Assembly (NCBI RefSeq): GCF_014268455.2
Contig: NZ_CP077085.1
Span: forward strand, 2,521,001 to 2,585,000
Source: Pseudomonas shahriarae
GTDB lineage: Bacteria > Pseudomonadota > Gammaproteobacteria > Pseudomonadales > Pseudomonadaceae
DNA length: 64,000 nt
Reading direction: 5' to 3'
This document shows, piece after piece, positions 6,050-49,018 of the stretch (its first letter is position 1; the number at the start of each line of letters is the position of its first letter). Position numbers and translations under genes: made by a program. A model generated the notes under the pieces. That model made no database searches. It was given only the letters and a program-made list of their open reading frames with translations, and was not told the DNA's origin.

Positions 6050-6226
6050 CCTTAATCTGGCGGTGGGCGCTGGGTTGTTTGTGATGGTCATGAGTCTTTA
6101 CGCAGCGCTCTTTTTGGGTTGTTGGGGTTGTGTACATATCCGTTGTTGCGGTTATGGCGGCTATTGGTTCCGCCCTTACGGCGGGTCACTTTCGAAGAGC
6201 GCGAAAGTAAGCAAAGCGCTCTTGCC

Positions 6227-7529
6227 GGTATGACTCACCCACATGGGTTACAAATCAGTTCACGCACATAGGTAACAGTTATTAACTGGCAGGGTCGATT
6301 TTGTGAGGATCTGACCATGCCCTGGGAAGAGCTGAAACCTATGGACCTCAAAGTGATGTTCATCGCCGCCTATTTGGCTGAAAGAGATACCTTTAGCCAG
6401 CTGTGCCGCGACTACCAGGTCAGTCGAAAGACTGGCTACAAATGGGTCGAACGGTACGAGGCTGAAGGACCCAGAGGGCTCGAAGAACGTAGCCGGTGCC
6501 GGCACAATCAAACCTATGTTGTGCCTCTTGCTATCAGGCAAGCAATTATCGAGCTTCGTTCTATCGGGGAGACTATTCCCGGGCCGAAGAAGATTCAGAA
6601 CGACTTGCGCCAGCGTTTTCCCGGGCAGGATCCACCCTCGAAAACCACCATTTACAACATCCTCAAGGCCGCTGATCTGATTGCACCTCGACGTGTGCGT
6701 CAGCGCGTGGCTGTCTATCCAAAGCCCCTGTGCAAGGTAGAAACCCCAAATCAGCTCTTTAGCGCTGACTACAAGGGGCAGTTTCTGACAGGGGCCGGAG
6801 TGTGGTGTTATCCGCTGACGATCATGGACCATGCCAGCCGCTTTCTACTGGCCTGCCAGGGCATGCGCAATACCAACTTCAAAGAAACCCAACAAACCTT
6901 CGAGCGTGTTTTTCGCGAGTATGGCTTGCCTGAACGTATTCGGACCGACAACGGCATACCGTTTGCCAGCACGGGCCGTGCAGGGTTATCACAGCTGTCG
7001 ATCTGGTGGCTGCGGTTGGGGATTATCCCTGAGCGAATTGAGCCCGGCCGCCCAGATCAGAATGGGCGCCATGAAAGGATGCACCGAACCCTGAAAAGCA
7101 CTTTGCCCCAACCAGCGGCGATTGCTTGGGAAGCTCAGCAGAAACACTTTGATCGCTTTATGCAGCACTATAATCATGAGCGAGGGCACGAGGCGCTTGG
7201 CCAGAAAACACCAGCCTCATGTTATTTGCCCTCACCCCGCGCTTACCCGGAAAAGCTGCCTGAAATGGGGTATGCGAGCCACGTGGAGTGTTACCTGGCT
7301 GATAGTAATGGAATCATCAATCGAGCAGGTCTTAGGATCTACATAGGCAATCTGCTCAAGCATCAGACCATTGGAATGGAGCTAATTCGAGATGATGTCT
7401 GGGAGGTGATCTTCGGGCCTGTGATCCTAGGCCGTGTCGATGCTAGAGACGCAAAGAACGGGTATGTTTCAATCAAAGTGTCACCTATGTGAATGCACTT
7501 TTTTGTAACCTATGTGGTTGTCCCGTACA
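6227..7529 (+). mobile_element. IS481-type insertion sequence, 1303 bp
   Basis: The ends are imperfect inverted repeats of about 45 bases, sharing the inner block ccacat(g/a)ggttacaaa and a second cacataggtnac. The left end reads ggtatgactcac and the right end, inverted, tgtacgggacaac. TGCC flanks both sides (6223-6226 and 7530-7533). The uninterrupted sequence cttgccccacc is present in the other two copies of the host repeat (near 40640 and 48280), so the insertion site and the 4-bp target duplication are fixed by comparison. One transposase gene fills the element. Confidence 0.9.
6317..7492 (+). CDS. IS481 family transposase
   Basis: 391 residues. An N-terminal helix-turn-helix (residues about 15-50, including YQVSRKTGYKWVERYE) is followed by an rve-type integrase core. 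The DDE acidic residues are visible in FSADYKGQF, RTDNGIPFAS and NGRHERMHRTLK. Gaggat lies eight bases before the ATG. The frame is intact over the usual family length, so the element may still be active. It reads through most of the IS between its terminal repeats. Confidence 0.93.
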   Translation: MPWEELKPMDLKVMFIAAYLAERDTFSQLCRDYQVSRKTGYKWVERYEAEGPRGLEERSRCRHNQTYVVPLAIRQAIIELRSIGETIPGPKKIQNDLRQRFPGQDPPSKTTIYNILKAADLIAPRRVRQRVAVYPKPLCKVETPNQLFSADYKGQFLTGAGVWCYPLTIMDHASRFLLACQGMRNTNFKETQQTFERVFREYGLPERIRTDNGIPFASTGRAGLSQLSIWWLRLGIIPERIEPGRPDQNGRHERMHRTLKSTLPQPAAIAWEAQQKHFDRFMQHYNHERGHEALGQKTPASCYLPSPRAYPEKLPEMGYASHVECYLADSNGIINRAGLRIYIGNLLKHQTIGMELIRDDVWEVIFGPVILGRVDARDAKNGYVSIKVSPM

Positions 7530-8198
7530 TGCCCCACCACTCGGCACCTCGCCTAGGCTCGGTGTGCCCGTCATCCGACATTGATTTGGGGGGCCGCCGC
7601 GATGGGCCATCCATGGCCCAGCGCGGCTAAACCGGCGTCCTGCCGGTTTACCCCCCAAATCAATATCGGATGACGGCCAGCGTGGTTTAACGGGGCGCCT
7701 CAGATCAAAAGCAAAGCGAGGCGGCCTGACAGCCGACCTGATCGTCGAAGCGTGCGCATATACCTGTGGGAGCTGGCTTGCTGTTGCTCTGCTGTTGCTC
7801 TGCTTTTGATCTTAGGCGCCCCGTTAAACCACGATGGCCGCAGGCAGGTATTGCGCAGTGGGCACCCCGGCATGGATGCCGGGGTAGCCGCGACACGGCC
7901 ATGGATGGCCGATCGCGGCGGGCCCACGGAGCAATGCCTGACTGCGGGCATGCCGAGCCTAGGCGAGGCACCGAGTGGTGGGGCAAGAGCGTTTTGCTTA
8001 CTTTGGCGCTTCTCCAAAGTGAGCCGCCGTAAGGGCGGAACCCTAAGTGGCCGTAACCGCAGCAACGGATATGTACAAAACCCCAGAAAAGAGCTGTGTA
8101 GATACCTATGCCGCGATGGCGGTGTATCAGTCGCCGTATGTATCGGACAACCCAGCGCAATCGCCGGCAAACCAGCCCCTACAAGGTTTTTTGGCCCA

Positions 8199-37100: not shown

Positions 37101-40100
37101 GTCTGGCCGACAGCCATTACGGCATGTTCGCCCAGGGCGTGCTGGTCTGGACCGAGCAGGGCTCCATCGACAATTACGGCGACACCAGCATGGTCGGCGA
37201 GCCCGTGAGCCCTGGCAACCTTGGAACCTGCACGGACTACCCCGGTTCCTGTGAGTCGGGCGGCGATGCCTACAGCCTGGTGGCGGGGGGCAGTAGCCGT
37301 TTCAGTGTGGTGCGCACCGGGGCCGCTGACCTGGACTTGTTGGCCGCTGGCAATCTGAGCATGGAGTCGCTGTACGGGGTCTACACCGCTGGCAGTTCTT
37401 CCACGGGTACCTCGGCCAACGACCCCTACAACCTGCCGCGGGCGCTTGGCGAAAACGCCAAGGTGCTGGGCAATAGCGTGGGTGGCAACGAGAAACTGGT
37501 CAATGGCGGCGCAGACAGTGTGTACCGCGCCTGGTATCCGGAGGCGGGCGGCAACCTGTTGTTGAAAGTGGGTGGGAACCTGACCGGTGACATCACCAGC
37601 CCGTCACTCAGTGCCTCGGGGCGTCCGGTCCGCAACGATCTTGGCCAGGATTCGGCGAATGTCGGCAACTGGTTATGGCGCCAGGGTAATGGCTTGAGTG
37701 GTTCGGCGGCACAAGCGACGGCCTGGTGGATCAATTTTGGTACCTACGCCAGCAACCTCGCCCTGGCGGGGGGGGCCGACCAGATGGTGGGCTTCACCGG
37801 CTTCGGTACGTTGGGCGGTGGCAACCTGAATGTCGACGTGGGCGGCGATGCCGGGATCATCCGGCCATTGGCTGCCGGTTATGTGCCCCAGGCGGTGAAC
37901 TTGCACAGCCAGGGGGTGGTGTTGGCGGTGGGCAGCACCGGGCGCGTGGCGGCTGACGGCAGCCTGCAACTGACCGGCGGTGGTGACTTGAACCTGCGGG
38001 TCGGCGGTGCCGTGAATCCAGGCAGTCAGATTACCCAGGACCACCTCAACGGCACGCTGGTGAACCTGCGTGGGCACGTGCAACTGACCGGCGGCGCCCT
38101 GGGCAGCCTGGCCTTGCGTTATGGCAGCCGGGTGATCGACCAGAGCCCCGGCGAAGTCCGCGCCTATGATCCACTGCGCGCCACGTCAGCCGCGGCGGCC
38201 GGTGGCTTGAGCCTGTTACCCGGTGATGCCACCTTCAACCTGGCCACCCGTGGCGACCTGGTGCTGCAGGATGTGGCCGATCCAGGGCGCGTCGCGCAGA
38301 CAAATGCCTTGGCCTACGTTAACGACGGGGTCAACGGCGTAGGGCAGAGCTGGTTCAGCCTGTGGACCCGCAACACGGCAGTGGACCTGTTTTCGGCCGG
38401 TGGCAACCTTACGCCGCTGACACAAACGCTGGAGACGGATATGGCGGCGGTCTATCCCGCCACATTGCGCGCGGTGGCCGCCAGCGGCAGCCTGTATTAC
38501 GGGCGTGCCGCGACCGCCAACCCTGGCTCGCTGCCACCGCTGGCGGCACTGGTGCTGGCGCCATCGGCCAACGGTCAATTGCAATTGCTGGCTGGGGATT
38601 CGATCTATGGCGGCGACCTCACCGTCAGCCGTTCCAGCGCCGCGCCGGACAGCATGGCGACGATCCTCAACCCGGCGTTCCTGGGCTTCGTCAACTCCCT
38701 GCCCATCGCGGGCAGCGGCAACCTTTCCGGCGATAGCAACATTGCACGCCTGGGGCTTTCCCCGCTGTTCACCTTCGGTGCCAACACGGCCAGCACGTCG
38801 TGGGGCGATACCCTGGAACCTGCGCGTTTTTATGCGTTGAGCGGTGACCTGCTGGGCGTCAACAGTGGGCGTGCCCTGACCATCACCAGCGCCGGAGACC
38901 CGCGTGTGGGGCAAACGTTTTATGAGGGCGCAGGCCCGGTCTGGATGCGGGCGGGGCGTGACATCGTCAGCAGCGGCACGCGCCTGGGGGGCGCCAGCGG
39001 TGGCGAAGTGGATACCGGTGAATATGCCTTCGACGCCAACCTGTTCGTGCATAACGGCCTGACTGACATCTCCATTGTCAGTGCCGGGCGCGACATGCTC
39101 TACAGCAGCTTCAATGTCGCAGGGCCCGGCACCCTGGAGTTGACGGCAGGGCGCAACCTCCTTATGGAGGACAAGGTCAGCGTCAACAGCCTTGGCGCCG
39201 TGGCCGCAGGTGACAGCCGTCCCGGCGCGAGCATCGTCATGCTGGCGGGTGTTGGCCCCAACGGTCCGGACTACCGGCGCTTTGTCGAGACTTACCTGAA
39301 TCCTGAGAACCAACTGCAGACGGGCGAGCCTTTGACGCTGCTGGGAGGCAAAGTCGCCAAGACCTACGAACGCGAACTGGCCGGGTGGCTGGCCGAGCGC
39401 TTCGGGTTTGTCGGTGACAGTGAACAGGCCCGCGCCTACTACGCGGCGCTGTCGGCGCAGCAGCAGCGGGTGTTTGCCCGTGAGGTGTACTTTGCCGAAC
39501 TCAAGGCCGCCGGTCGCGAATACAACCAGGCTGGCGGCGTGCGCGAGGGCAGCTATGTGCGGGGGCGGGCGGCGATTGCCGGGTTGTTCCCGGACAAGGA
39601 CGTGGCCGGCAATGCCATCGCCTACAAGGGCGATATCACCCTGTTCGGCGGTGCCGGGGTGCACACCAATTTCGGTGGCTCGATCCAGATGCTCACCCCG
39701 GGTGGTGGCCAGACATTCGGCATCGAGGGGGCGGCACCGCCGTCCACCGCCGGGGTCATTACCCAGGGCGCGGGGGATATCCAGCTGTATTCCCTGGACA
39801 GCATCCTGCTGGGCCAGAGCCGGATTATGACCACCTTTGGCGGCTCGATCATGGGCTGGTCCGCCGCAGGCGATATCAACGCCGGGCGGGGTTCCAAGAC
39901 CACCGTGGTCTACACCCCGCCACGGCGTGTGTATGACAACTGGGGCAACGTCAGCCTGTCGCCGTCGGTGCCGAGTACCGGTGCGGGGATCGCCACGCTT
40001 AACCCGATCCCGGAAGTGCCGGCAGGGGACATCGACCTGATTGCGCCGTTGGGCACCATCGACGCCGGTGAAGCGGGGATTCGTGTGTCGGGCAATATCA

Positions 40101-40471
40101 ACATTGCCGCGCTGCGGGTGGTCAACGCGGCGAATATCCAGACCCAGGGTAAATCGTCCGGGGTGCCGGTGTCGGCGGCGGTCAACACCGCGGCCATGAG
40201 CTCAGCCAGCGCGGCGGGGGCAGCGGCATCCCAGGCCGCCGAAGACGCGGCCCGCAACCAACAGGCTGCAGCGCGCCAGGGCCGGGCGTCGATCGTCACG
40301 GTGGAAGTGCTGGGGTTTGGCACCGAGCCGGTGCAACGCCGGGAGGAAGAAGCACGCCGGGCGCCGACCTACAACCCCGACAGCCCGGTGCAGGTGCTGG
40401 GTGCGGGGCCGTTGAGCGAACAGGCCAAGGCACGGCTGACGGATGAGGAGCGGGGGCAGATCAGTTTGTAA
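28160..40471 (+). CDS. pdtA: giant TpsA-type filamentous hemagglutinin family exoprotein (PdtA-like)
   Basis: 4103 residues, close to P. aeruginosa PdtA. It has an extended signal peptide (1-41, basic start then IALLLVAGSAQG). The TPS secretion domain spans about 125-300 (LNWETFNVGRNTTVDFQQ and the NRNGVVFSG turn). A very long beta-helical repeat region follows, and a DUF3739-like C-terminus (about 3860-4000, TFGGSIMGWSAAGDINAGRG). Residues about 2750-2930 differ: a Pro/Asp linker then LPAGTVL/LEAGTVL-type repeats. Cysteine pairs occur near 2018 and 3022. It should be exported by the TpsB at 49853. No frameshift is seen over 12.3 kb. Likely a surface adhesin. Confidence 0.93.
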   Translation: MVRCKPPVNLNARGPSGQTVLRLKPLAHAIALLLVAGSAQGATAFSSGWFAAKGASQAATAARPGAQVPGMPPPLSQQARVNQQMQRSLSTLNNSVAAIAAQQAAQAAGRQAALGQVSTIPDGLGKGGLQVDNSLTQGWINAKGPTQSQAGGQTTVSIEQTADKAILNWETFNVGRNTTVDFQQQSNWALLNRVNDPNARPSEIQGQIKGAGTVMIINRNGVVFSGSSQVNVRNLVAAAAAITDEQFTQRGIYFDATGTQPTFTDAAGKVQVQRGALIQTHDAATSTDAGGYALLLGTEVENAGTLITAKGQTTLAAGDSFYIRKGVGTAGNARSTTRGNEVASSLKAGSSAGSVTNSGLIMAATGDITLTGHTVQQNGVALASTSVDTRGTLHLLNSASDTTGSVSLGEGSTTAILLDSSGTTALNNQRENGLVNLDGLVNPQASGQFNNLGRVADRTDQSRIEIVSGGTVDFQKGSITLATGGQVAVSAGQRSLVREGAMIDVSGAIGVKVAMQANNIKINVQGNEQRDAPVNRDGGQLINNDVWIDLRELVFVPAGTNGYATDRWYTAGGLLEVGGYLGTQGHSVGEWMAQGGSVTFTGDEVVTQQGAQINLSGGTVDVQGGYVQQTWLKGPDGRLYELSKAPGDILYTGLYKGFADTSERWGRTDLYYNPLIAPQRRFEAGYTVGRDAGKLVIGTGNAVLEGQLISDVFQGERQTQAPNINLDGYQQSQKAQAQRAQLIIGQYTPIFNKSTGTLRYALTPGMEQVLIEGGTQKIAAGLDLGTALPAGRQGTLVLDSEQLNGFQLGAIKVGAKQQITVNGGLSVADGGDITLYGPQVAVNANLTAHGGSLHAGNVLSQVNLDRQNAVEEVILAGSGHVAVAAGVVLDASGRWNNLALQPSLTEGVAYANGGKVALRGTGDVSLGAQSLVQVSSGATVGQDGKVSGGKGGSVTLGAQGALVLGGEIRGYGVSGGGTLALQSRQVLIGDAGSLDAGTLHLAGDFFKKGFSAYDITGNEGLIVADGTQVGVEVPVYRVGEQVQTLPSGTDPASLMQVWTPELYQQDALKSVLSQRRGASLSLTAGHLDSSAAQLASTALSVGQGAVITVDPGQAINLRSVGQLTVNGTLNAWGGSVSLGGLNVASSEAVNAAGHGRSIWVGEQALIDVAARAVSAVDNRGRHYGLVRNGGNISLGGTINLATGIAQASDVFVVVRDGARLEASGAQADLDLPGQGRVPVASNGGSISLASNNGLYLDGRFVAQAGGAGASGGSLVVALESPYYLKSAVSDRVLKARELLLSQTHQPSTLAGTAEAATAELEYGHARLGVDQVSAGGFDNLALLSNGLLSVDGDLSLHMGQSLRLYSGALGLSEQAAQNARVNLSAPHLLLAGILAPLEAKDQYQHPVLTSAMSQRASQAQFTASANLLEVRGNVLFGNKSNLTQADNSQLSVDRRGFDDVQLSSQGDLRFLAGANADAVAQGISTQIMTRGDMTLQAAQLYPATEVGARVLAGYLDGVDGYDPTRTLTIARAGNETGAVPYSAFGRLQLGGPSIRQGGVVRAPLGLIEVGILGTHKVELLPGSLTSVSGKGLVLPYGGTVDGQVYQYNGKTVSFLGQGAIANLNGDLSVGVILGGQSVAVLPEATLDLSGGGELLGAGFISGRGGSTDARYNPLMQVGTHGGFVLPGLGSNPVYAIVPGAQPGYAPVAPEGGAVDPLLGQQITLDAGVPGLAAGTYTLMPSTYALMPGAFRVEINGLAGRGTEEVPQALRNGSWSAAGRLSIVNTGISNRVASQVILTSADTLRRYSQYNETGYAQFAVADAAKLGVPRALLPVDAKTLKLALHPGGGANAFSFAGIGRFEAATDGFAGTVAVMNMGTGGIEVMAPGKAATEGFEGVSVGAASLNALGAARLMIGGMTQVSYGQSGNYINVVGANSSSITLREGASLAAPEVFLVSSTGEIVMEQGASINTLGRGKASYDARDGFVYQVANMLAVSNGLLNVVNAVQAGGAASGGINLGACNSAPCSGQTALYSEGSIVALTDKTLQMGDEVRYGTRHLNLGLASINVGSPEALAAAAAGNRLPAGMTLTQQVLDRLLRGDTQFGAPALETLQLSARDSFNFYGSSALDTYDAVTGKSLLSRLMLSAPAIYGAGSASDVASIHTANLIWLGAETPAVAAIDGGAGSGNGRLDIQAERIEFGYGDFAQPSTTKRFDRLALGFAHVNLSASERITANHKGSLSVYQRQGAYDPLKGFAYTGGDLSILTPLLTGEAGSVNRITAGGTLDIGASAGARGKVEGLGGELSLQGDSIRLASAVVLPSGKVTLDARGDVVLTDDSLIDVAGRAIVFNDLTKYGAGGEVSLQSREGNVLQATGSTIDLSAQHNQAGTLRAVAVGDTGGVVDLAGKLLAGSSGYYDAGGTRVPYLAGAVEIQAQRLGTSGILDEQFAALNQRLNQGQVFGARSFQLKQGDLSIGNEVKANSVSVSLDNGSLRVTGRVDASGERVGSINLTAKTGLTLDGSAVLDAHGSQLRVDSHGQIIDAPNRAMVVLGSGQGQLTLADGARIDLRHGTDGGVGHDGRSRGTLELNAPRLNSDDIAIDARGRLDIQGARSIALNGMISYDDAPTKTDATASGRPYQVIDQKYLDKKHELSVLFINAALSNHDLLNNKLAGLNNATYADALHLRPGVEIVSKTPQGDLVVQGDLDLSGYRYASLNPHTQKNPDVYGSGEVGRLTLRAGGDLNIYGSINDGFTPPPPSDDDNGWVLLPGINYTGGTQVVPGTGVTLADGTRFPAGAILNFDVSIKALSLANGTRLPVPVTLSQPLVLPAGTVLAAAILDGSGTQLFAAGTLLSQSQTLEAGTVLGAGTLLTSNTSVRAMIWPKGVPLPGRLGSTAFVTLNGSKALPRGALLPAGTNVKLAGNAKSVKLRVEEAGRQGKNWGVAPMLTEGSQAWAIRLVAGADTQAADSSRLQVSPVTGNLRLADSHYGMFAQGVLVWTEQGSIDNYGDTSMVGEPVSPGNLGTCTDYPGSCESGGDAYSLVAGGSSRFSVVRTGAADLDLLAAGNLSMESLYGVYTAGSSSTGTSANDPYNLPRALGENAKVLGNSVGGNEKLVNGGADSVYRAWYPEAGGNLLLKVGGNLTGDITSPSLSASGRPVRNDLGQDSANVGNWLWRQGNGLSGSAAQATAWWINFGTYASNLALAGGADQMVGFTGFGTLGGGNLNVDVGGDAGIIRPLAAGYVPQAVNLHSQGVVLAVGSTGRVAADGSLQLTGGGDLNLRVGGAVNPGSQITQDHLNGTLVNLRGHVQLTGGALGSLALRYGSRVIDQSPGEVRAYDPLRATSAAAAGGLSLLPGDATFNLATRGDLVLQDVADPGRVAQTNALAYVNDGVNGVGQSWFSLWTRNTAVDLFSAGGNLTPLTQTLETDMAAVYPATLRAVAASGSLYYGRAATANPGSLPPLAALVLAPSANGQLQLLAGDSIYGGDLTVSRSSAAPDSMATILNPAFLGFVNSLPIAGSGNLSGDSNIARLGLSPLFTFGANTASTSWGDTLEPARFYALSGDLLGVNSGRALTITSAGDPRVGQTFYEGAGPVWMRAGRDIVSSGTRLGGASGGEVDTGEYAFDANLFVHNGLTDISIVSAGRDMLYSSFNVAGPGTLELTAGRNLLMEDKVSVNSLGAVAAGDSRPGASIVMLAGVGPNGPDYRRFVETYLNPENQLQTGEPLTLLGGKVAKTYERELAGWLAERFGFVGDSEQARAYYAALSAQQQRVFAREVYFAELKAAGREYNQAGGVREGSYVRGRAAIAGLFPDKDVAGNAIAYKGDITLFGGAGVHTNFGGSIQMLTPGGGQTFGIEGAAPPSTAGVITQGAGDIQLYSLDSILLGQSRIMTTFGGSIMGWSAAGDINAGRGSKTTVVYTPPRRVYDNWGNVSLSPSVPSTGAGIATLNPIPEVPAGDIDLIAPLGTIDAGEAGIRVSGNINIAALRVVNAANIQTQGKSSGVPVSAAVNTAAMSSASAAGAAASQAAEDAARNQQAAARQGRASIVTVEVLGFGTEPVQRREEEARRAPTYNPDSPVQVLGAGPLSEQAKARLTDEERGQISL

Positions 40472-40499
40472 GGTTCACACGGTGGGCTTGTCTGCGATG

Positions 40500-41345
40500 G
40501 GCATAGGTAGCTACACAACCTTCTAGGTTTGTGTACATATCCGTTGCTGCGGTTATGGCGGCTATTGGTTCCGCTCTTACAGCGGGTCACTTTTGGAAAA
40601 GAGCCCGGAGTGCCGGCCCAGCCAAAAGTAACCAAAAGGGCTCTTGCCCCACCACTCGGCACCTCGCCCAGGCTCGGTGTGCCCGTCATCCGACATTGAT
40701 TTGGGGGGCCGCCGCGATGGGCCATCCATGGCCCAGCGCGGCTAAACCGGCGTCCTGCCGGTTTACCCCCCAAATCAATATCGGATGACGGCCAGCGTGG
40801 TTTAACGGGGCGCCTCAGATCAAAATCAAAAGCAAAGCGAGGCGGCCTGACAGCCGACCTGATCGTCGAGGCGTACGCGTACCCCTGTGGGAGCTGGCTT
40901 GCCTGCGATGACGGTGCATCAGCCAATACATTTATCGACTGATACACCGTCATCGCAGGCAAGCCAGCTCCCACAGGGGGGAATGCAGCTTCGCGCCCCG
41001 GCTTTGCTGTTGCTCTGCTTTTGATCTGGCTTTTGATCTTGATCTCAGGCGCCCCGTTAAACCACGCTGGCCGCAGGCAGGTATTGCGCAGTGGGCACCC
41101 CGGCATGGATGCCGGGGTAGCCGCGACACGGCCATGGATGGCCGATCGCGGCGGGCCCACGGAGCAATGCCTGACTGCGGGCATGCCGAGCCTAGGCGAG
41201 GCACCGAGTGGTGGGGCAAGAGCGCTTTGCTTACTTTGGCGCTCTTCCAAAGTGAGCCGCCGTAAGGGCGGAACCCTAAGTGGCCGTGACCGCAGCAACG
41301 GATATGTACACAACCCCAGAAAAGAGCTGTGTAGATACCTATGCC
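40500..41345. repeat. Large palindromic intergenic element, copy 2 (intact, 846 bp)
   Basis: Ends ggcataggtagctacacaac and gtgtagatacctatgcc are inverted repeats. Left half: arm 40525-40683, three-way junction X 40684-40790. Centre: full REPIN 40887-40974. Right half: three-way junction Y 41072-41179, arm 41180-41330. REP halves also touch both outer ends (40482-40500 and 41363-41390). It begins 28 bases after the pdtA stop and is opposite in orientation to copy 3 at 48147. Outside the element, 41391-41460 shows nothing else. Confidence 0.88.
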
Positions 41346-41460
41346 GCGATGCCGCTGACCCACCGCCATCGCGGTCAAGCCCGCTCCCACCGCGACCCGG
41401 GCGAAGCAGAAAAACCCCGGCCACATCACACATCAAATGTCGAAGCTGCCTTATACCCAC

Positions 41461-42282
41461 TCAAGGCTGGCAAGGATCGGTCCTGTTCAACAAATTCCCC
41501 GTCGAATACCACACACGCTGCGCCGCCGGCCCCAGGTCCAGCGCCACCGGCGCATCCGCACGCCCCTCCAGCAAGGTCGGATAAACCCCAGGCTTGAGCG
41601 GCGACTGACACACAATCGGCAACGACTGCACCGTGGTGAAATTCAAATCCACCGTAGACACCAATTGCGCCGCCGAAAACGGCGCCGGTGGCCCAGGCAG
41701 GGTGATGATTTCCTGGAAGTCCGGATCCTGGGCGATGTAGTGCGTCAGGTGCGCCTCATTACCCCGGCCAAACAGGGTGTACACCATCTGCTTGGGCCGC
41801 TCGATCCCCAGGTTGAACGGCCGGTAGATCACCACCGCCTCGACCGTCACCGGCACGTTGTCAAACAGCACCGGCCCCGGGGTGCCGCCGCCATCATTGG
41901 AGTAGCCGTCATAGATCGTCGCCTTGAACGCGGTCACTTCGCCGGCCTTGAGTTGGGGCAGGGTGAAGGTGTCGTTATCGACGTTGATCAGGTTATACGG
42001 CTTGCTCGGGTTGGCTGCGCGCAGGGCCTGGTACTTGGCCATTACGTCAGCCGGCAGGCTGGCCTGCAGGACGATCTGGTACATGTGCTTTTCCGTGGTG
42101 AACATCGGCATGTGCACCAGGAACAGGGTCTGCGATCCGACCATGAACATGCCGTGGTTGCCCGGTGCATCGGCATCGGCGCCGTTGTTCAGGGCGTGCA
42201 GTTCATGGGCCGAATGGGCAAAGGCCTGGGGGGCGAGGGCCATTGACAGGGCGAGCAGCAGGGTGGCGAGGGAGCGTTTCAT
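41461..42282 (-). CDS. secreted His-rich protein of unknown family
   Basis: 273 residues. The signal peptide ends at QAFA. The mature N-terminus is rich in histidine and methionine (HSAHELH, GNHGMFM, HMPMF, EKHMYQ), suggesting copper or other metal binding. Two cysteines lie near the C-terminus. Its start overlaps the cytochrome stop by four bases, so it is translated with it. It is the last gene of the minus-strand tyrosinase block. No family recognised; a metal-handling role for the tyrosinase or cytochrome is inference. Confidence 0.7.
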   Translation of the reverse strand: MKRSLATLLLALSMALAPQAFAHSAHELHALNNGADADAPGNHGMFMVGSQTLFLVHMPMFTTEKHMYQIVLQASLPADVMAKYQALRAANPSKPYNLINVDNDTFTLPQLKAGEVTAFKATIYDGYSNDGGGTPGPVLFDNVPVTVEAVVIYRPFNLGIERPKQMVYTLFGRGNEAHLTHYIAQDPDFQEIITLPGPPAPFSAAQLVSTVDLNFTTVQSLPIVCQSPLKPGVYPTLLEGRADAPVALDLGPAAQRVWYSTGNLLNRTDPCQP

Positions 42283-43880
42283 GGTTGGCCGTCCTTGAGG
42301 GTTTCGAAGGCATGTACGCGTTTGATCAGGCTCGTTTGCTTGGCCGAATCGGCGTTGTTGAACAGGAACGAGAAGTCCGAGGCCAGGGTGGTGCTGCCGG
42401 CAATGGTCGCTTGCTGATGGCAGTCATTGCAGTTCATGCCCTGGACGTAGGTCTCCAGGGTGGTATTGGCCACGGGTACGTTGCTGTCGCTGATAAAAGC
42501 ACCGTAGGACAGGGGAACCTTCGCCTTCGGGCCCGGCTCGGGGTCGGGCGGCGTCGGGGCGGTGATCCACAGTACATTGATCAGCTTGTAGTACTGGAAC
42601 ACCGACTGGCCGTTGGTCTGTTGGGCGAAGCTGGCCTGCACTGCGCCGTTGAGCGCCTGCATGTCCGACGACAGTGGGTGTTCGCGGGTGGTCTGCACCG
42701 GTTGGTCCCGTGGATAGGGTTCGGTGCATTCGCGATCCGGGTGGTGCTGTTTGCACTGGATGCGCGCCACGTTCGGCGTACACACATCGGGGCCGCCGGT
42801 GCAGTTGGGATTGTTGAAGGTGTAGCCGTCCGGGGGCAGCTGTTGCGCGGGCACCTGGCCCGGTTCCGGTACGTTGTCCACGTGCTCGAAGGTGGTCCAG
42901 ATAAAGTTCGGTGAGCTCTGGGTCTTGTTGATGATATGCAGGCCCACCAGGCCCACCACCTGTTGGGTGCATTGCAGGGTGGCGGGGTTCTTGAGCCAGG
43001 CCACAGTGGTCAGGTAGCGCCCGTAGAGTTGGGGTTGGCCGGTGAGGATGCGCCAGGCGGCCTTGAGTTCCAGGGCGCCCAGTTGTTCCTGGGGTAGCGG
43101 GGTGGTGGGCATCGAGCGCATCAGCTCACCGGCGGGCAGCGACAGGCCGGCTGGGTGTTTGCCATCGCTGTTTTGCGCGACGATCAGTTGATTGGCGGCA
43201 TCGTACAGACCGTTGTCGACGATGTAGTCGAACTCGGCCTTACCGACCTTGCGTTCGAAATACACCAGGTTGCCGGTCTGGTCCGTGAGCCAGCCACCGG
43301 CGGCTTCCATGATCGGGTCGGGAATCGACGCCAGGGTGCCGCTGGACAAGTGGAAGCGATGCCTGGCGTTGGTCGCGCTTTCCGAGGTGGCATTCATGAA
43401 TTTACGCGCCCCTACCGACAGGGCCTGGAGGCTGTCCTGGCTGCTGCAATTGGGCGGCACCAGGGTTTGCACCCCCCAACCGCTGGGCTTGGGTGCGCCG
43501 GGCAGGAAAATCTCATTGGCGTCTTTGTAGCTGGCCCATACCGGCGCCACGCTCATGGGCTGTCCGGCGGTGGTGGGCACGCCGAATTGCGCGACGGTGA
43601 TGGTTCTGTCCGGCTCGCCCGCCAGGCTGGCATTGGCCGGCCAGCCGGGGTCCACCGGCCAGTTCAGGGCGATGAACAATTGCCAGCCAAAGCAATTCAT
43701 AAAGCTCTGGCCGGTGGTGTTGAAGTTGTTGACCGGCATAAACCCGCCGCTCTTGGGGTTGAACACCAGTTGCTGCTGGACGCAGTTATCGGCATCGGAC
43801 GCGTGGGCCAAGGGCAGGATAAACAGTGACAGCAGGGTGCTGACCAGCAGCAGACGACTCAAGCGAAACCTGGACATCAT
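42279..43880 (-). CDS. periplasmic c-type cytochrome-like protein
   Basis: 533 residues from ATG 43880 (a second ATG at 43877 has better spacing from aaggag). The signal peptide ends at AHAS. One CxxCH haem motif, CNDCH, lies at residues 484-488 near the C-terminus, with no second motif. The long N-terminal 430 residues contain several cysteines and match no family I can name. Coupled to the His-rich gene and 68 bases after the 577-residue gene. It may accept or deliver electrons for the oxidative enzymes of this block. Confidence 0.75.
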   Translation of the reverse strand: MMSRFRLSRLLLVSTLLSLFILPLAHASDADNCVQQQLVFNPKSGGFMPVNNFNTTGQSFMNCFGWQLFIALNWPVDPGWPANASLAGEPDRTITVAQFGVPTTAGQPMSVAPVWASYKDANEIFLPGAPKPSGWGVQTLVPPNCSSQDSLQALSVGARKFMNATSESATNARHRFHLSSGTLASIPDPIMEAAGGWLTDQTGNLVYFERKVGKAEFDYIVDNGLYDAANQLIVAQNSDGKHPAGLSLPAGELMRSMPTTPLPQEQLGALELKAAWRILTGQPQLYGRYLTTVAWLKNPATLQCTQQVVGLVGLHIINKTQSSPNFIWTTFEHVDNVPEPGQVPAQQLPPDGYTFNNPNCTGGPDVCTPNVARIQCKQHHPDRECTEPYPRDQPVQTTREHPLSSDMQALNGAVQASFAQQTNGQSVFQYYKLINVLWITAPTPPDPEPGPKAKVPLSYGAFISDSNVPVANTTLETYVQGMNCNDCHQQATIAGSTTLASDFSFLFNNADSAKQTSLIKRVHAFETLKDGQP

Positions 43881-43912
43881 CGCGCTCCTTGCAGAAATGA
43901 GGGGGGCTTGTT

Positions 43913-43938
43913 GTGGCGAGGGGCTTGCACCCTCGCCA
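43913..43938. repeat. single REP hairpin
   Basis: gtggcgagggg and ccctcgccac form a short hairpin in the 68-base gap between the cytochrome-like gene and the 577-residue gene. It may modulate messenger stability within the operon. Confidence 0.7.
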
Positions 43939-43948
43939 CAGGGGGGGC

Positions 43949-45682
43949 TTAGGTGGATGGCACCAGCGCCAGCCCGGATTCCCACGGGTGGTCCGCCGCG
44001 CTGACGTTATCCGCCTCGCCCGGGTTGAGCGCGCGTACCGTCACCAGCCCCGGCGCCGCGTTCGCCGCGACGCTGATGGTCATGATGTAACCCTGGGTGC
44101 CGCCCGCGTTGGTCTGGCCGGGAATGGCCGAGGCGTCGGGCATGAACTTCGTGACCTGTGCCGTCACCCCGGGATTGCTGAACTGGATCCTCGCCGTGGC
44201 GGCGGTGGTCTGCAGATCGGCGCCTTGCACCACCAGGACAAACTGCCCGCTGCTGCCAGGGGCCAGCCAGGCCGGCAGGTCGGTAGGCGACTGGCCGTAG
44301 AACAGGTCCAGCGGCAATAACTGCACCGGCCAGGGTTGCAGGCCATTGACCCGGTCTTGTACGCAAGGAGACGGCGCCGCCGTGGTGCTCGGCATGACGG
44401 TCACACTCAGGCCCACCAGCAGTTGCTGGGCAATCACCCACACATAGTCCACGGCCTGGCCGTTGATGGTGATGTCATTGATCGAGAACCCCGCGCTTTG
44501 CGGCACCTCGAACACCGCCTGGAGGATCTGGTCGGAGCCGTTGATCGCCGATTTGGCGGTGCCGCGGGTAATGCGCCAGTACTGACTCACATCCTGGCCC
44601 TGCGGGCCTTTCCACGCGCTGAAGTTGGTCGGTTGCTGCAGGTACAGGGCGATGGGATTGGTCAGGGAGATACGGTTGCTGATGGCCGCCTCATTGGCCG
44701 CAAAACCGATATGCGGGTCGGAGTTGCGATAGTTCTGCCCATATTGCGCGCAGCAGATCAGCGACTGAGGGTTCTGGCTGCTTTTCAGGGGCCGCATGAT
44801 CGTGGCCGCCGCCGCCAGGTACACCTCGGCGCTGAGGGTGTTGGGGCCGGACGTCAGGTGCATCGCGCCACCGAACTGGCCGGGCGTACAGGCGGTGCCG
44901 GCGTTCCATTTGTTGACAGTGTCGTAGGCGGGCAGGCCCGTGGTCGGGTCAATCACCGGATCCCCGGCATTGCCGGTCGGGCAGTTGGTGGCGTAGCGCA
45001 GGTAGAGGTCTTCGAGTTGGACGTTCGGGTCGATGTAGTCGCGATACAGCCCCAGCACGGCATTCGGGTCGATGCGCCACATGGCCAGGAAGTACGCCGG
45101 GTTTTCGCTGGTGAAGGTGATTTTGCGCATGTCGCCATTGGCATCGCGGACAATCGACCACTCGCAATACTCGTCCAGCCAGCCCCGTGGGCCCGAGGGT
45201 GAGAAGTCCTTGTACTTGCCGTTCCAGTCGATACTCGGGCAACGGGTCACCGGCAGTTGCAGCAGGGTGCCTTTTTTGTCCGGGTCGTACAGGGTGTACA
45301 GGGTGTCGTTGATGGTGATCTGGCCATTGTCGGTCAGTTCCATGACCTGTTGCAGGGTCATGGCCTTGCCGCCCAGTTGCGGAATCACCGCCGTGCCGTT
45401 GCTATAAAAAAACGTCCACAGCCGGTTGGGAAAGGGTTGCCAGGTAATCGCCGGCGGGGTGGTGTCGCCATAGCCCTCGACCAGCGGGTTGTAATAGCCC
45501 GAGCGTGGCGCGTCGTACAGGCCCGACCATGGGTTGCCGATGATCGCCGCTTCGGTCCAGCCGGTGACGTCGTTGTTCCAGTCGGTTTCAAATTGCGGCA
45601 ACTGGTCTTCCAGGCCCAGCTTGTTGTAGTCCTTTGGCGCTTGCCCGGCGGGGGAGGTGAATTGCTTGAAGGGCGTGCTCAT
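43949..45682 (-). CDS. hypothetical protein, 577 residues, in tyrosinase cluster
   Basis: From the ATG at 45682, overlapping the tyrosinase stop by four bases. No signal peptide or membrane helix. The sequence is rich in Trp, Tyr and Pro, with cysteines in TRCPSIDW, DEYCEWS, ATNCPTG and SLICCAQYGQ, and a C-terminal Ig-like or IPT-like beta section (after residue 430). I do not recognise the family. Some quinone-cofactor oxidases of the LodA type are Cys/Trp-rich and travel with helper genes, but I see no motif that proves it. Tight coupling to the tyrosinase implies a joint function. Confidence 0.72.
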   Translation of the reverse strand: MSTPFKQFTSPAGQAPKDYNKLGLEDQLPQFETDWNNDVTGWTEAAIIGNPWSGLYDAPRSGYYNPLVEGYGDTTPPAITWQPFPNRLWTFFYSNGTAVIPQLGGKAMTLQQVMELTDNGQITINDTLYTLYDPDKKGTLLQLPVTRCPSIDWNGKYKDFSPSGPRGWLDEYCEWSIVRDANGDMRKITFTSENPAYFLAMWRIDPNAVLGLYRDYIDPNVQLEDLYLRYATNCPTGNAGDPVIDPTTGLPAYDTVNKWNAGTACTPGQFGGAMHLTSGPNTLSAEVYLAAAATIMRPLKSSQNPQSLICCAQYGQNYRNSDPHIGFAANEAAISNRISLTNPIALYLQQPTNFSAWKGPQGQDVSQYWRITRGTAKSAINGSDQILQAVFEVPQSAGFSINDITINGQAVDYVWVIAQQLLVGLSVTVMPSTTAAPSPCVQDRVNGLQPWPVQLLPLDLFYGQSPTDLPAWLAPGSSGQFVLVVQGADLQTTAATARIQFSNPGVTAQVTKFMPDASAIPGQTNAGGTQGYIMTISVAANAAPGLVTVRALNPGEADNVSAADHPWESGLALVPST

Positions 45683-47493
45683 GTCAGATCTCCATGGGGG
45701 GTAGAAACGGAGCAGCAACCGGCACTCGGGGGAGGGTCGGCAACGGTCTGGCGCGGGTCGTCCCACACCAGTTGGGCGATAAAGCCAGGCAGCGGCGCAT
45801 ACTCTTGCGGCGCCAATACCCGGCCACTATCGAGATGGGTGACCAGCAGGCTCAACTGCAGCTCGTCCGTGGGGCCAAGGTGCAATGCCGTGACACTGCG
45901 CGCGGCATTCAGCGCGCGGCACACGCCATGGGGGATGCAGCGCCCCTTGTCATCCACCAGGCCCATGCCGATCCGGCTGAAGCGCCCGACGTAGTGCGGG
46001 TTCTCAGCGCTGACCTGCTGGGGCGTGGCGTCGGCCTGGTTGAGGAAAACGTCGATCAGGTAGGTGTCGTGGGTGCAGCGCACATGGTCGAACACTACCC
46101 ACGGGCCGCTGGCCTGGGCCTGCTCCTGGGCAGGCGCGGCACTGTGCGGGCAGCACGCTTTTGCGCTGGCGCGTCGTGCACCGAACGGCGGCGCCACCGG
46201 GGTGCCGTAGTCGTAGCCGATGTGCCGGCTGTCCTGGGCCATATCGCCCAGGGTGGTGTAGCGCCAGGCATCGGCACTGGTGAACGTGACCGTCTCGGCC
46301 TGGTTGCCGGCAAACGGCTGGAGCAGGCACTGGGTGGTGTACTGCGCCGCCGGGTTGGCGCGGATCCAGATCTCCAGCACGCGGTCGATATTGGCGTGGT
46401 AAGAGCAGAACAGTGGGTCAAACGCGGTGTAGGCGTTATCGGCCATATCGCCGCCGATCCAGCCGTGATAGTTGTCGTGGGGCTGCTCGTACAGGCCATC
46501 GAAATTCAGTGTGCGATTGGGGTACAACTCGTCTTTTTGCGGCGGATCGAACTCGGTGATATTGGCCCAGGGATACCCCGGCACGCCCTGGGGCTGGCTG
46601 AAGGTCTTGAACGTCAAGGCATCCACCACCTGCTGCTGGAAAATCCGGCTCATGCCATACAACTGGGTGCGTTTGACGCGTTGTGAGTCGCCCTGGGTGT
46701 AGAACAGCGGGTTGCGTTGCACAAAGCGGCAATCCACGCCCTCGACATTGCCCGAGGCACACACCTTCGAGCGCCCATCCTTGGCCGCCGCATAACGCAA
46801 TGGGTTGGGCCGTACTTCGCCGCTGCGGGGATGCACATAGGTTTCATCGAGAAACGCCTGGGGCAAACCGGCCTGGGGGCTGCCATCGACACTGGCGTCT
46901 TCGGCCATCCAGTCCCAGTACGGGATCGGGTAGTCAATCAAGGCTTCCAGGTACAGCAGGTAAGCGCGATGCCACAGGGCAAAGGCCTCCTGATAATGCA
47001 GGCACCAGTTGCTGTGGATATAGGCATAGCGCTGCCACGGCGAGCCACTGTCCGGGTTGCCGATCTGCATCACGTCATCGAGCCGCGCGCGGTACAGATC
47101 CAGTTGTTCCTGGCTCAACGCGCGGATGTCCTGGCGCACGCGCCTGACCGGGTGCGGCAGGTCTGGCGGCGGGATGCGCTCGGCGATATCGAACGGCGAA
47201 AAACTGTTCAGGCGCCAGCCCTGGTTGACCCACAACCGGAAGGTTTCCAGGGCGTCGATCGGCCAGAACTGCCGGTCATCCAGGGTCAGCGGCATGTTGC
47301 GTGAGGCCAGGTGCTGGTAGATGGTTTCGGACCAGGTCTTGACCGAATCGGGGTCTTCCAGGAACACGTCGTAGGCATTCATGCAACGCACCCACGAGCC
47401 TGCGACCTGGCCGCGCTCGGCGGGCGGTATCCAGTAAGGCGCGGTGAAAAGCCCTTGGATATCAGCGGTCCATGTCGGTTTCGCAACTATCAT
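45679..47493 (-). CDS. tyrosinase family copper oxidase
   Basis: 604 residues from the ATG at 47493. CuA ligands are H160, H166 and H175 (HYQEAFALWHR). CuB ligands are H339 and H343 (QPHDNYH) and H366 (FCSYHANIDR). The usual W/H before the last CuB histidine is C-S-Y here. A C-terminal extension of about 180 residues contains CC pairs (KACCPH, GCCSV) and looks like the domain that shields the site in polyphenol oxidases. No signal peptide. It should oxidise phenols to quinones. Divergent from the Lrp-type regulator, which probably controls it. Confidence 0.9.
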   Translation of the reverse strand: MIVAKPTWTADIQGLFTAPYWIPPAERGQVAGSWVRCMNAYDVFLEDPDSVKTWSETIYQHLASRNMPLTLDDRQFWPIDALETFRLWVNQGWRLNSFSPFDIAERIPPPDLPHPVRRVRQDIRALSQEQLDLYRARLDDVMQIGNPDSGSPWQRYAYIHSNWCLHYQEAFALWHRAYLLYLEALIDYPIPYWDWMAEDASVDGSPQAGLPQAFLDETYVHPRSGEVRPNPLRYAAAKDGRSKVCASGNVEGVDCRFVQRNPLFYTQGDSQRVKRTQLYGMSRIFQQQVVDALTFKTFSQPQGVPGYPWANITEFDPPQKDELYPNRTLNFDGLYEQPHDNYHGWIGGDMADNAYTAFDPLFCSYHANIDRVLEIWIRANPAAQYTTQCLLQPFAGNQAETVTFTSADAWRYTTLGDMAQDSRHIGYDYGTPVAPPFGARRASAKACCPHSAAPAQEQAQASGPWVVFDHVRCTHDTYLIDVFLNQADATPQQVSAENPHYVGRFSRIGMGLVDDKGRCIPHGVCRALNAARSVTALHLGPTDELQLSLLVTHLDSGRVLAPQEYAPLPGFIAQLVWDDPRQTVADPPPSAGCCSVSTPHGDLT

Positions 47494-47641
47494 AAGATCC
47501 CTCTCACGCCGCCCCATGCTGGATCTTTCGGGGCTGCTAAGCTGGAATTGATAGTAACGGGCCACTGTGCAGTGATTTGTGCAAATTGGCCGCCCGTTAC
47601 GGCGGATTCATTGCAGTTTTCTCAAGGAAGAAGTGGAAATA

Positions 47642-48133
47642 ATGACAGACGCCATGGATTTGAAAATTCTCGGCAAATTGCAGAAGGATTGTACCCAGAG
47701 CCTGGACCTGCTCAGCGACAGCGTGGGGCTATCCTCGACCAGTTGTTACCGGCGCATCCGGCGCCTGGAGAGCGCGGGGATCATCAAGGCGAAAGTCGCG
47801 GTGCTGGATGAAAAAAAGCTGGGGATCCAGGTCACGGCGTTCTTTTTGATCAAGCTCGACAAGGACAGCAACGACATTGATCGCAAGATGCAACACATCC
47901 TGGCCACCCGCCCGGAGATTCAGGACTGCTACCTGATGACCGGGGAGTTCGATTTTGTGATGGTGGCCAAGTTTCGCGATGCCACGGAGTACACCGAATA
48001 TATCTATCGGTTTCTCGACACTTACCGCGATATTCCGATTCGCACTTATTCGTCGACGCTGGTGGTGCGTACGGTGAAGAAGTCTTATGAGCTGCCGCTG
48101 CAGGGTGTGCAGCATTTGCCTCCGGATCTGTAG
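47642..48133 (+). CDS. Lrp/AsnC family transcriptional regulator
   Basis: 163 residues from the ATG at 47642 with aaggaag upstream. An N-terminal winged helix (DLKILGKLQKDCTQSLDLLS, recognition helix in SSTSCYRRIRRLESAG) precedes the RAM ligand domain (about 75-150). It faces the tyrosinase gene across a 148-base gap, so it likely regulates that operon in response to an amino acid, possibly an aromatic one. The stop lies 13 bases before the palindromic element. Confidence 0.9.
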   Translation: MTDAMDLKILGKLQKDCTQSLDLLSDSVGLSSTSCYRRIRRLESAGIIKAKVAVLDEKKLGIQVTAFFLIKLDKDSNDIDRKMQHILATRPEIQDCYLMTGEFDFVMVAKFRDATEYTEYIYRFLDTYRDIPIRTYSSTLVVRTVKKSYELPLQGVQHLPPDL

Positions 48134-48146
48134 ACGCGCGGTTTGT

Positions 48147-49018
48147 GGCATAGGTATCTACATAAACTCTTTCGTGGTTCTTGGGGGGTGTGTACATATC
48201 CGTTGCTGCGGTTACGGCCACTTAGGGTTCCGCCCTTACGGCGGCTCACTTTGAAGAGCGCCAAAGTAAGCAAAACGCTCTTGCCCCACCACTCGGTGCC
48301 TCGCCTAGGCTCGGCATGCCCGCAGTCAGGCATTGCTCCGTGGGCCCGCCGCGATCGGCCATCCCTGGCCGTGTCGCGGCTACCCCGGCATCCATGCCGG
48401 GGTGCCCACTGCGCAATACCTGCCTGCGGCCATCGTGGTTTAACGGGGCGCCTAAGATCAAAAGCCAGATCAAAAGCAGAGCAACAGCAAAGCCAGAGCG
48501 CGAAGCTGCATTCCCCTGTGGGAGCTGGCTTGTCGGGTCGCCGCATCGCTGCGATGGCGGTTCATCAGCCAATACATTTATCGACTGATACACCGTCATC
48601 GCAGGCAAGCCAGCTCCCACAGAGGTACGCGTACGCCTCGACGATCAGGTCGGCTGTCAGGCCGCCTCGCTTTGCTTGTGATTTTGATCTTAGGCGCCCC
48701 GTTAAACCACGCTGGCCGTCATCCGATATTGATTTGGGGGGTAACCCGGCAGGACGCCGGGTTAGCCGCGCTGGGCCATGGATGGCCCATCGCGGCGGCC
48801 CCCCAAATCAATGTCGGATGACGGGCACACCGAGCCTGGGCGAGGTGCCGAGTGGTGGGGCAAGAGCCCTTTTGGTTACTTTTGGCTGGGCCGGCACTCC
48901 GGGCTCTTTTCCAAAAGTGACCCGCTGTAAGAGCGGAACCAATAGCCGCCATGACCGCAGCAACGGATATGTACACAACCCCAAAGAACCACCAAAGAGC
49001 TGTGTAGCGACCTACGCC
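48147..49018. repeat. Large palindromic intergenic element, copy 3 (872 bp, inverted)
   Basis: It starts ggcataggtatctacata and ends gtgtagcgacctacgcc. Junction Y' lies at 48321-48428, a REPIN with a small insertion at 48518-48620, and X' at 48717-48823; the order is the reverse of copy 2. The arm near 48890-48930 contains the longer form with ttacttttggctgggccggc. A REP half (49017-49042) touches the right end. The gap 49043-49178 is the 5' region of phdA. No gene is supported inside. Confidence 0.88.

What the first reader, a model, noticed from the sequence alone, without database searches (positions are those of the whole stretch)
40500..49018. A 0.85-kb palindromic element in three copies, two of them in opposite orientation
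Copies at about 6083-8112, 40500-41345 and 48147-49018 share terminal inverted repeats (ggcatagg...cctatgcc), two arms, two inner hairpins and a central REPIN. Order and orientation show that copy 3 is copy 2 flipped as a unit. The element is far larger and more structured than a REPIN and has no credible gene. I know of no described mechanism for such a unit. It could be a non-autonomous mobile element, a nested REPIN derivative or a structured RNA/DNA locus.
Basis: seen in the sequence. Interest (0 to 1): 0.85.

Follow-up and report, generated by a model that had tools for sequence, protein, structure and literature searches.

The report
REP-targeting mobile element carrying RNA hairpins
The repeat is a small, gene-less jumping element that inserts into existing bacterial repeat sequences and carries two mirror-image copies of a known structured-RNA motif thought to bind a global regulator, so it may scatter regulatory RNA across Pseudomonas genomes.

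Summary
In detail: three ~0.85-kb palindromic copies at the stated places (copy 1 split by an insertion sequence, IS). The genome has about 35 copies. The unit is a MITE-like, non-autonomous transposable element: ~20-bp terminal inverted repeat (GCATAGGTATCTACACA), 8-bp target duplication, and many orthologous sites in relatives without it. Insertions fall preferentially inside REP sequences. The same terminal repeat bounds ISs (complete or decayed) of one IS4-superfamily, Tn5-related transposase lineage in Acinetobacter, Arsenophonus, Aeromonas and Serratia. One Pseudomonas genome keeps a fossil of that transposase between such repeats; no intact partner was found in 398 Pseudomonas genomes. 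The two 'inner hairpins' are the orphan Rfam RNA TwoAYGGAY, in opposite orientation, each read outwards. Compensatory changes, a G-U over A-C excess on the outward strand and near-invariant GGA loops point to selection on RNA. Others proposed that TwoAYGGAY binds CsrA; binding and expression were not testable here. The RNA arm also occurs without the terminal repeat, so the mobile unit probably captured an existing module. 'Copy 3 is copy 2 flipped' is over-read: it is another copy in opposite orientation. New variant of a known kind.

The parts
40501..41344 (+). Copy 2, whole element (terminal repeat to terminal repeat, GCATAGG...CCTATGC)
   Evidence: reference copy for the genome searches
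40493..40500 (+). Left target-site copy TGCGATGG (inside a REP)
   Evidence: 6 of 8 identical to the right copy
41345..41352 (+). Right target-site copy CGCGATGC (inside a REP)
40501..40519 (+). Left terminal inverted repeat of copy 2
41326..41344 (-). Right terminal inverted repeat of copy 2
40674..40800 (-). TwoAYGGAY RNA module, left arm of copy 2 (read outwards)
   Evidence: RF01731, 60.4 bits (gathering 43)
41055..41193 (+). TwoAYGGAY RNA module, right arm of copy 2 (read outwards)
   Evidence: 53 bits
40884..40980 (.). Central REPIN of copy 2 (two REPs facing each other)
48148..49017 (-). Copy 3, whole element, opposite orientation; no target duplication left (3 of 8)
   Evidence: absent from the orthologous site of relative G374
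48707..48833 (+). TwoAYGGAY module, right side of copy 3
   Evidence: 60.9 bits
48342..48407 (-). TwoAYGGAY module, left side of copy 3 (partial model match 45-113)
   Evidence: 48.2 bits
48515..48625 (.). Central REPIN of copy 3
6083..8112 (+). Copy 1, split by an IS; left terminal repeat degenerate, right one intact
6227..7529 (+). IS inserted in the left arm of copy 1 (1303 bp; 99.6% and 100% identical to stretches inserted in two other copies, L051 and L060)
6317..7492 (+). Transposase of that IS (391 aa; rve and HTH domains, IS481 leucine-zipper model)
7559..7685 (-). TwoAYGGAY module, left arm of copy 1
   Evidence: 60.4 bits
7860..7925 (+). TwoAYGGAY module, right arm of copy 1 (partial model match 45-113)
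   Evidence: 52.8 bits

Best explanation
The unit is a non-autonomous transposable element (MITE type). Shown: ~20-bp terminal inverted repeats GCATAGGTATCTACACA, an 8-bp target duplication, occupied and empty sites between close relatives, and strong preference for the GCGATGG part of REP sequences. Shown: the same terminal repeat bounds ISs that encode one IS4-superfamily (Tn5-like DDE) transposase lineage, and a Pseudomonas fossil has pieces of that transposase between such repeats. Inferred: the element was moved in trans by that transposase (cut-and-paste, DDE), probably in bursts after which the transposase was lost. Its cargo is a pair of TwoAYGGAY RNA modules in inverted orientation, each read outwards, around a central REPIN. 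Shown: the arm's local structure is kept at RNA level on the outward strand, with conserved GGA loops. Inferred: the hairpin pairs bind CsrA-family proteins (RsmA/RsmE). Because the element is a palindrome, a transcript crossing it from either side carries exactly one sense-oriented GGA pair, so each insertion would add an Rsm-binding site to the RNA of a neighbouring gene whatever its orientation.
For: Mobility: search with 14 joined flank pairs in 5 relatives (12 of 14 loci informative): by my tally, of 41 locus-genome pairs with both flanks on one contig, 29 have at most 180 bp between the flanks, 9 have 219-558 bp, 2 are occupied by large copies (gaps 746 and 951) and 1 has its flanks 15 kb apart. 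Empty sites read at base level: at L033 relative G374 has GCCCGCGATGAGGCC against CGCGATGA[element]CGCGATGAGG; also L046, L057 and the 120-bp mini copy L122. Target duplication: 41 of 54 non-Gallionella elements with both terminal repeats have 7 or 8 of 8 matching bases (32 perfect) against about 10% (1.9% perfect) with swapped right flanks; 34 of these 41 rejoined sites hold a REP motif (14 bases, up to 3 mismatches) against 4.6% of random 52-mers. Partner: Acinetobacter plasmid IS L247 (terminal repeats with 2 and 1 mismatches of 22, 409-aa ORF); the same repeat at the transposase ends in Arsenophonus, Aeromonas, Serratia (left end degraded) and, one end, Methylotuvimicrobium; Pfam DDE_Tnp_1; Tn5 transposase E 8e-10 by profile; fossil L253 in G071. 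RNA: Rfam hits above gathering score; 50 non-redundant arms: on the 56 pairs found in the folds of both strands 26 have Watson-Crick double changes, and G-U occurs in 13 pairs, A-C in 1 (22 against 1 cells) on the outward strand; GGA in 49 of 50 arms for each loop.
Against: No intact partner in Pseudomonas: 0 of 398 genomes by tblastn (the tool warns that an empty answer without a known positive shows nothing), 1 of 398 by profile, and that one is a fossil whose left end matches only in its first 13 bases. 20 DDE_Tnp_1 matches in five genomes have no pair of such ends within 1.5 kb (two isolated matches with 6-7 mismatches of 22), and no reading frame over 150 aa in them matches the partner profile. 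Most of the TwoAYGGAY or arm loci I fetched from other Pseudomonas genomes lack the terminal repeat (3 of 13 have a weak one, 1 of 13 shuffles; two of the 13 lie at contig ends and were scanned only in part), so the RNA module also travels or persists without this MITE. Of the three window copies none has a perfect duplication: copy 2 has 6 of 8, copy 3 has 3 of 8, copy 1 about 6 of 8 by eye; and G374 has a decayed remnant at copy 2's site, not an empty site. A sigma-70 pattern scan found no promoter-like site (0 against 0.3 in shuffles). Expression and Rsm binding were not tested. Double changes in inverted repeats can also arise by template switching; the G-U/A-C asymmetry and the loops do not follow from that. 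The arms are related sequences, so the counts are not independent events.
Confidence: 0.8

Rival explanations
1. Pure selfish or DNA-level element: the hairpins serve transposition or cruciform formation, and TwoAYGGAY in Rfam is, in Pseudomonas, a repeat of mobile DNA mistaken for an RNA.
For: The Rfam family is met many times per genome, inside repeats; whole-element palindrome, z -33.9 as one strand; no promoter-like site; mini copies of 110-250 bp with the same ends and duplications do without the RNA module.
Against: On pairs common to both strand folds, G-U occurs in 13 pairs and A-C in 1 on the outward strand; GGA loops kept in 49 of 50 arms; a DNA cruciform would not favour one strand.
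Confidence: 0.3
2. REPIN-type element moved by a RAYT (IS200-like tyrosine transposase): the outer REP pair are the ends, the arms are a long spacer.
For: REPs flank many copies and a REPIN lies in the centre; at several loci of other species REPs followed by GGCGGCC..GCCGACC border TIR-less arms.
Against: 8-bp duplication and a terminal repeat inside the REPs; empty sites keep the whole REP; the 120-bp mini copy with the same terminal repeat sits at TTAAGAG, not in a REP.
Confidence: 0.07
3. Ancestral intergenic repeat lost by deletion in relatives, amplified by recombination and not by transposition.
For: Copy 2's site in G374 holds a decayed remnant; intermediate gap lengths at 9 of 41 locus-genome pairs.
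Against: Single-copy target at empty sites and perfect 8-bp duplications at unrelated places and in several species.
Confidence: 0.04

Closest known systems
MITEs of bacteria, e.g. MITEPsy1 of Pseudomonas syringae (PMC3189936, passages seen)
   Same: No gene of their own, terminal inverted repeats shared with an IS, target duplication, movement in trans
   Different: MITEPsy1 is 100 nt, probably from ISPsy2 (listed as IS5?), with a 4-nt duplication; here up to 0.9 kb, IS4-type ends, 8-bp duplication, REP target, structured RNA cargo in inverted pairs
IS4 superfamily transposases (Tn5/IS50 relatives); ISRm22 (IS4 family) of Sinorhizobium inserts into REPs (PMC1525189, passages seen)
   Same: Same catalytic family by profile; an IS4-family element with REP targeting is known
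   Different: ISRm22 carries its transposase and gives a 6-bp duplication; no resident partner is known here
TwoAYGGAY RNA (Rfam RF01731; table row seen in PMC2864571; proposed CsrA binding, PMC4333381, passages seen)
   Same: Hits above gathering score; paired GGA hairpins
   Different: Listed there for human gut, gamma-Proteobacteria and Clostridiales; in the passages I saw no link to a mobile element or to inverted pairs is made
REPINs/RAYTs (PMC3116915, passages seen)
   Same: REP sequences inside and outside the unit
   Different: REPs are the target and an internal part, not the ends
Intergenic repeat families R200 (320 bp), R26 (352 bp), R178, R30 of P. fluorescens (PMC2718517, passages seen)
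   Same: R200 and R26 have the size of single arms and are intergenic
   Different: Consensus sequences are in a supplement I could not read; identity untested

Membership tests
MITE | No transposase gene of its own | tested here: inconclusive
   Only mechanical reading frames overlap copies 2 and 3; I did not scan them against protein families. Copy 1's transposase belongs to an inserted IS. The RNA-structured palindrome makes a gene unlikely
MITE | Terminal inverted repeats with target duplication | tested here: met
   41 of 54 with 7-8 of 8; base-level empty sites
MITE | Ends shared with an autonomous IS | tested here: met
   IS L247 and others; the IS is in other genera
MITE | A resident transposase that can move it | tested here: not met
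   No intact copy in 398 Pseudomonas genomes; part of the mechanism, not of the definition
MITE | Observed movement | not testable with these tools
   needs a trap assay
IS4 superfamily (partner) | DDE_Tnp_1 domain and Y..R...E......K signature | tested here: met
   Pfam 36.2 bits, cut-off 23; YYWRWxIESFFKLLK in the alignment consensus (signature recalled); NCBIfam IS4 models match only below their cut-offs (68.2 of 160, run on the related protein of L244)
TwoAYGGAY RF01731 | Score at or above the gathering threshold | tested here: met
   6 hits in the window, 48.2-60.9 bits against 43
CsrA/RsmA-binding RNA | GGA in the loops of paired hairpins | tested here: met
   49 of 50 arms for each loop
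CsrA/RsmA-binding RNA | Expression and protein binding | not testable with these tools
   no RNA or binding data
REPIN | REPs form the mobile ends | tested here: not met
   REPs are intact in empty sites; terminal repeat and duplication lie within
REPIN | A RAYT gene in the genome | not tested
   no RAYT search was run

The most novel reading that the evidence does not exclude
A transposable element family that spreads binding sites for the global post-transcriptional regulator RsmA/RsmE: by being a palindrome of two outward-read GGA-hairpin modules, each insertion, in either orientation and for transcription from either side, adds one sense-oriented Rsm-binding pair to a neighbouring transcript. 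Tens of copies per genome would form a dispersed, evolvable decoy for the Gac/Rsm network.
Probability: 0.25. Interest if true: 0.85.

Novelty: new variant of a known kind. Interest (0 to 1): 0.62.

Why it matters
It ties an orphan RNA family of 2010 to a mobile carrier, which would help explain its many copies per genome, and makes its proposed CsrA/RsmA binding testable. It identifies the IS lineage (IS4 superfamily) whose ends these Pseudomonas and Gallionella repeats share, and REPs as their main target in Pseudomonas. If the RNA layer is functional, transposition would be a way to rewire a global regulatory network.

Tried and rejected
IS256 as partner (the 8-bp duplication suggested it): no PF00872 match in 9 genomes, while the control rang in 6 of 14. 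A 7-bp duplication was my first reading (note); with ends GCATAGG...CCTATGC the 8-bp reading fits better. In some (Gallionella, L247) one C can belong to either the end or the target, so 7 and 8 cannot be separated there; one search takes the better of the two placements. RAYT/REPIN as mover: see rivals; no RAYT search was run. Plasmid and phage collections: the element itself matches 2 plasmid and 4 phage records, none over 34% of its length. The scan of viral contigs gave no relative of the partner transposase. Single terminal repeats with open reading frames beside them gave no autonomous copy by their ends; their ORFs were not scanned against Pfam because searches failed. Text search for six sequence strings in the paper library found none, but strings broken by layout would be missed; a search for Pseudomonas, MITE, RsmA, small RNA, repeat element, REPIN (5 of 6) found no paper. 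That I found no description of this element in print rests alone.

Rows dropped: one search kept only near-full arms (84, then 50 at 95% identity); one search dropped elements nearer than 30 bp to a locus end and duplicates by flank, and needs at most 4 mismatches of 19 at both ends; its loci outside the window's genome were fetched by an exact or one-mismatch terminal-repeat pattern, which favours young copies. Two of the 14 flank pairs (L062, L041) were uninformative because a flank is repetitive or an IS; pairs with flanks on different contigs were left out of the tally.
Full report
OBSERVATION. The three copies are real. Copies 2 and 3 are near-complete and in opposite orientation; copy 1 is cut by a 1303-bp IS with an rve-type transposase. 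Searching the window's own genome (G000, one 6.05-Mb contig) with copy 2 gave 112 pieces, which I merged by hand into about 35 places. By position 30 of the 35 lie between 1.30 and 3.92 Mb; I did not locate the origin or terminus. Further pieces of the family came from a terminal-repeat pattern search: a 120-bp copy at 3521448, a palindrome of about 235 bp without the RNA arms at 712290 and a lone end at 110483.

ENDS AND TARGET. The terminal repeat is GCATAGGTATCTACACA(ACTTT). Over 69 elements with both ends (own genome, other Pseudomonas, Gallionella), 32 of 54 non-Gallionella elements have a perfect 8-bp duplication and 9 more have 7 of 8; with right flanks swapped among loci the figures are 1.9% and 8%. 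Of these 41, the rejoined site contains a REP motif (14 bases, up to 3 mismatches) in 34, against 4.6% of random 52-mers from the same loci. Of 15 Gallionella elements 8 are perfect and 2 have 7 of 8; several share another palindromic target, CTCCCCTTCAAGGGGAG. A few elements (L029, L044, L061, L062, L184) have inverted, not direct, REP flanks: the element sits between two REP pieces in opposite orientation; at L061 (sprT locus) six close relatives carry a plain REPIN at that place. I have no tested explanation for these.

PRESENCE AND ABSENCE. G204, G374, G065, G403 and G045 were chosen after a search of 398 genomes at the sprT locus; G403 is Pseudomonas proteolytica DSM 15321 by two contig lengths. 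With 14 joined flank pairs, 29 of 41 locus-genome pairs with both flanks on one contig have at most 180 bp between them (about 120 expected when empty, about 240-1000 when filled, by locus), 9 have 219-558 bp (partial copies or other repeats), 2 are filled by large copies and 1 has its flanks 15 kb apart; this is my own tally from the table. Base-level reading of fetched sites shows one target copy in relatives and two in G000 at L033, L046, L057 and the mini copy L122; L045 is consistent with decay. At L033, G403 carries the remnant of a different, mini-type member at the same place. At L032, L036, L054 and L055 relatives also lack the element, but the flanking sequences differ and no exact junction can be read. 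For the window itself, G156 is 98-100% identical around copies 2 and 3 with its contigs ending inside both copies; G374 lacks copy 3 and has a decayed remnant at copy 2's site.

PARTNER. A 41-bp terminal-repeat query against plasmids gave chance-level E-values (2 and above), but several hits lie beside a ~410-aa transposase. In Acinetobacter plasmid pANC7924.1 both ends and one intact ORF form a 1.37-kb IS. A protein search on plasmids found 13 records; at four further lineages I looked for ends and found matching repeats at both ends in Arsenophonus and Aeromonas, a good right and a degraded left end in Serratia, and one end in Methylotuvimicrobium. The family has 579 homologs at E <= 1e-3 (120 listed). 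The profile of 30 members finds Tn5 transposase at E 8e-10. In 398 Pseudomonas genomes the single sequence finds nothing and the profile finds one fossil: 287 bp in G071, with a right end of 3 mismatches in 22, a left end matching in its first 13 bases, and fragments of the transposase (MHDWSRL.YMHRHSKADRLQM), at a CCATCGCG site. So the ends belong to this IS lineage, and the movers are absent, missed or lost in the sampled Pseudomonas genomes.

RNA CARGO. Rfam finds TwoAYGGAY six times in the window, two per copy in opposite orientation and read outwards, and in 211 of 298 Pseudomonas genomes (185 over the family's cut-off; at most 9 candidates scored per genome; 0 of 14 control genomes). I aligned 50 non-redundant arms from 84. 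The consensus fold of the outward strand is -111.9 kcal/mol against -89.1 for the other strand; single sequences fold better outward in 42 of 50. On the 56 pairs predicted on both strands, 26 show Watson-Crick double changes, G-U appears in 13 pairs (22 cells) and A-C in 1 pair (1 cell); in pairs predicted on one strand only, the excess follows the strand folded (outward-only 58 G-U to 5 A-C, inward-only 0 to 58), as expected, so I rest on the common pairs alone. The sequences are related, so these counts are not independent events. Loop 1 contains GGA in 49 of 50 and loop 2 in 49 of 50 (one gap). PMC4333381 (passages) proposed CsrA binding for TwoAYGGAY; that CAUGGAUG fits the RsmA/RsmE consensus is my recollection.

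LIMIT OF THE MITE READING. Of 13 arm or TwoAYGGAY loci fetched from other Pseudomonas genomes, 3 have a weak terminal-repeat match within 900 bp (1 of 13 shuffles; two loci at contig ends scanned in part); at several, a REP followed by GGCGGCC..GCCGACC borders the arm instead. In the window's genome 8 of the 35 loci (L031, L034, L035, L050, L052, L053, L054, L056) also show no terminal repeat at up to 5 mismatches in the stretch held. One-arm elements of about 490-560 bp with both terminal repeats exist, most with target duplications (L155, L164, L166, L210, L223). The RNA arm is therefore probably older or wider than the MITE that carries it here.

HOW IT PROBABLY WORKS. Shown: ends, duplication, target, polymorphism, RNA-level conservation. 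Inferred: DDE cut-and-paste in trans; landing in REPs, often between convergent genes (16 of 30 by a rough ORF call; five IS-neighboured loci left out, no genome-wide expectation computed); readthrough RNA from either side carries one sense GGA pair and folds strongly. RsmA/RsmE titration or marking of the neighbour's mRNA is a proposal.

PAPERS. Seen as passages: PMC2718517, PMC3116915, PMC2864571, PMC4333381, PMC11701678, PMC4666352, PMC3189936, PMC8450116, PMC1525189, PMC4383904, PMC10969869. All others only in search listings.

Noticed in passing
window 6227-7529; L029, L035, L051, L058, L059, L060, L061: Eight copies carry an insert in the same outer-hairpin region of an arm or its mirror: a 1303-bp and a 1258-bp rve-type IS (the latter in three copies), a 1340-bp one whose near-identical copy in L060 has an IS110 transposase, and an untyped 1637-bp insert. 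The element is itself a preferred IS target.
   Followed up: partly
L029, L044, L061, L062, L184: Elements flanked by inverted instead of direct REP pieces; at L061 relatives have an intact REPIN at that spot.
   Followed up: partly
L181-L238 (Gallionella MAG loci among them): Elements of 276-292 bp with the same terminal repeat, several in a CCTTCAAG palindrome; the MITE ends occur in a beta-proteobacterium.
   Followed up: partly
G000 copies: 30 of about 35 copies lie within 1.30-3.92 Mb of a 6.05-Mb chromosome.
   Followed up: no
L207 (Photorhabdus bodei): A single exact 23-bp terminal repeat just upstream of a reading frame; no convincing partner end found.
   Followed up: no
window 28160-40471: A 4103-aa open reading frame ends just before copy 2; its last 4.5 kb matched in 2 of 6 relatives among the matches listed.
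   Followed up: no
L066-L076: TIR-less TwoAYGGAY arms in other Pseudomonas are often bordered by a REP followed by GGCGGCC..GCCGACC, a possible second kind of carrier.
   Followed up: partly
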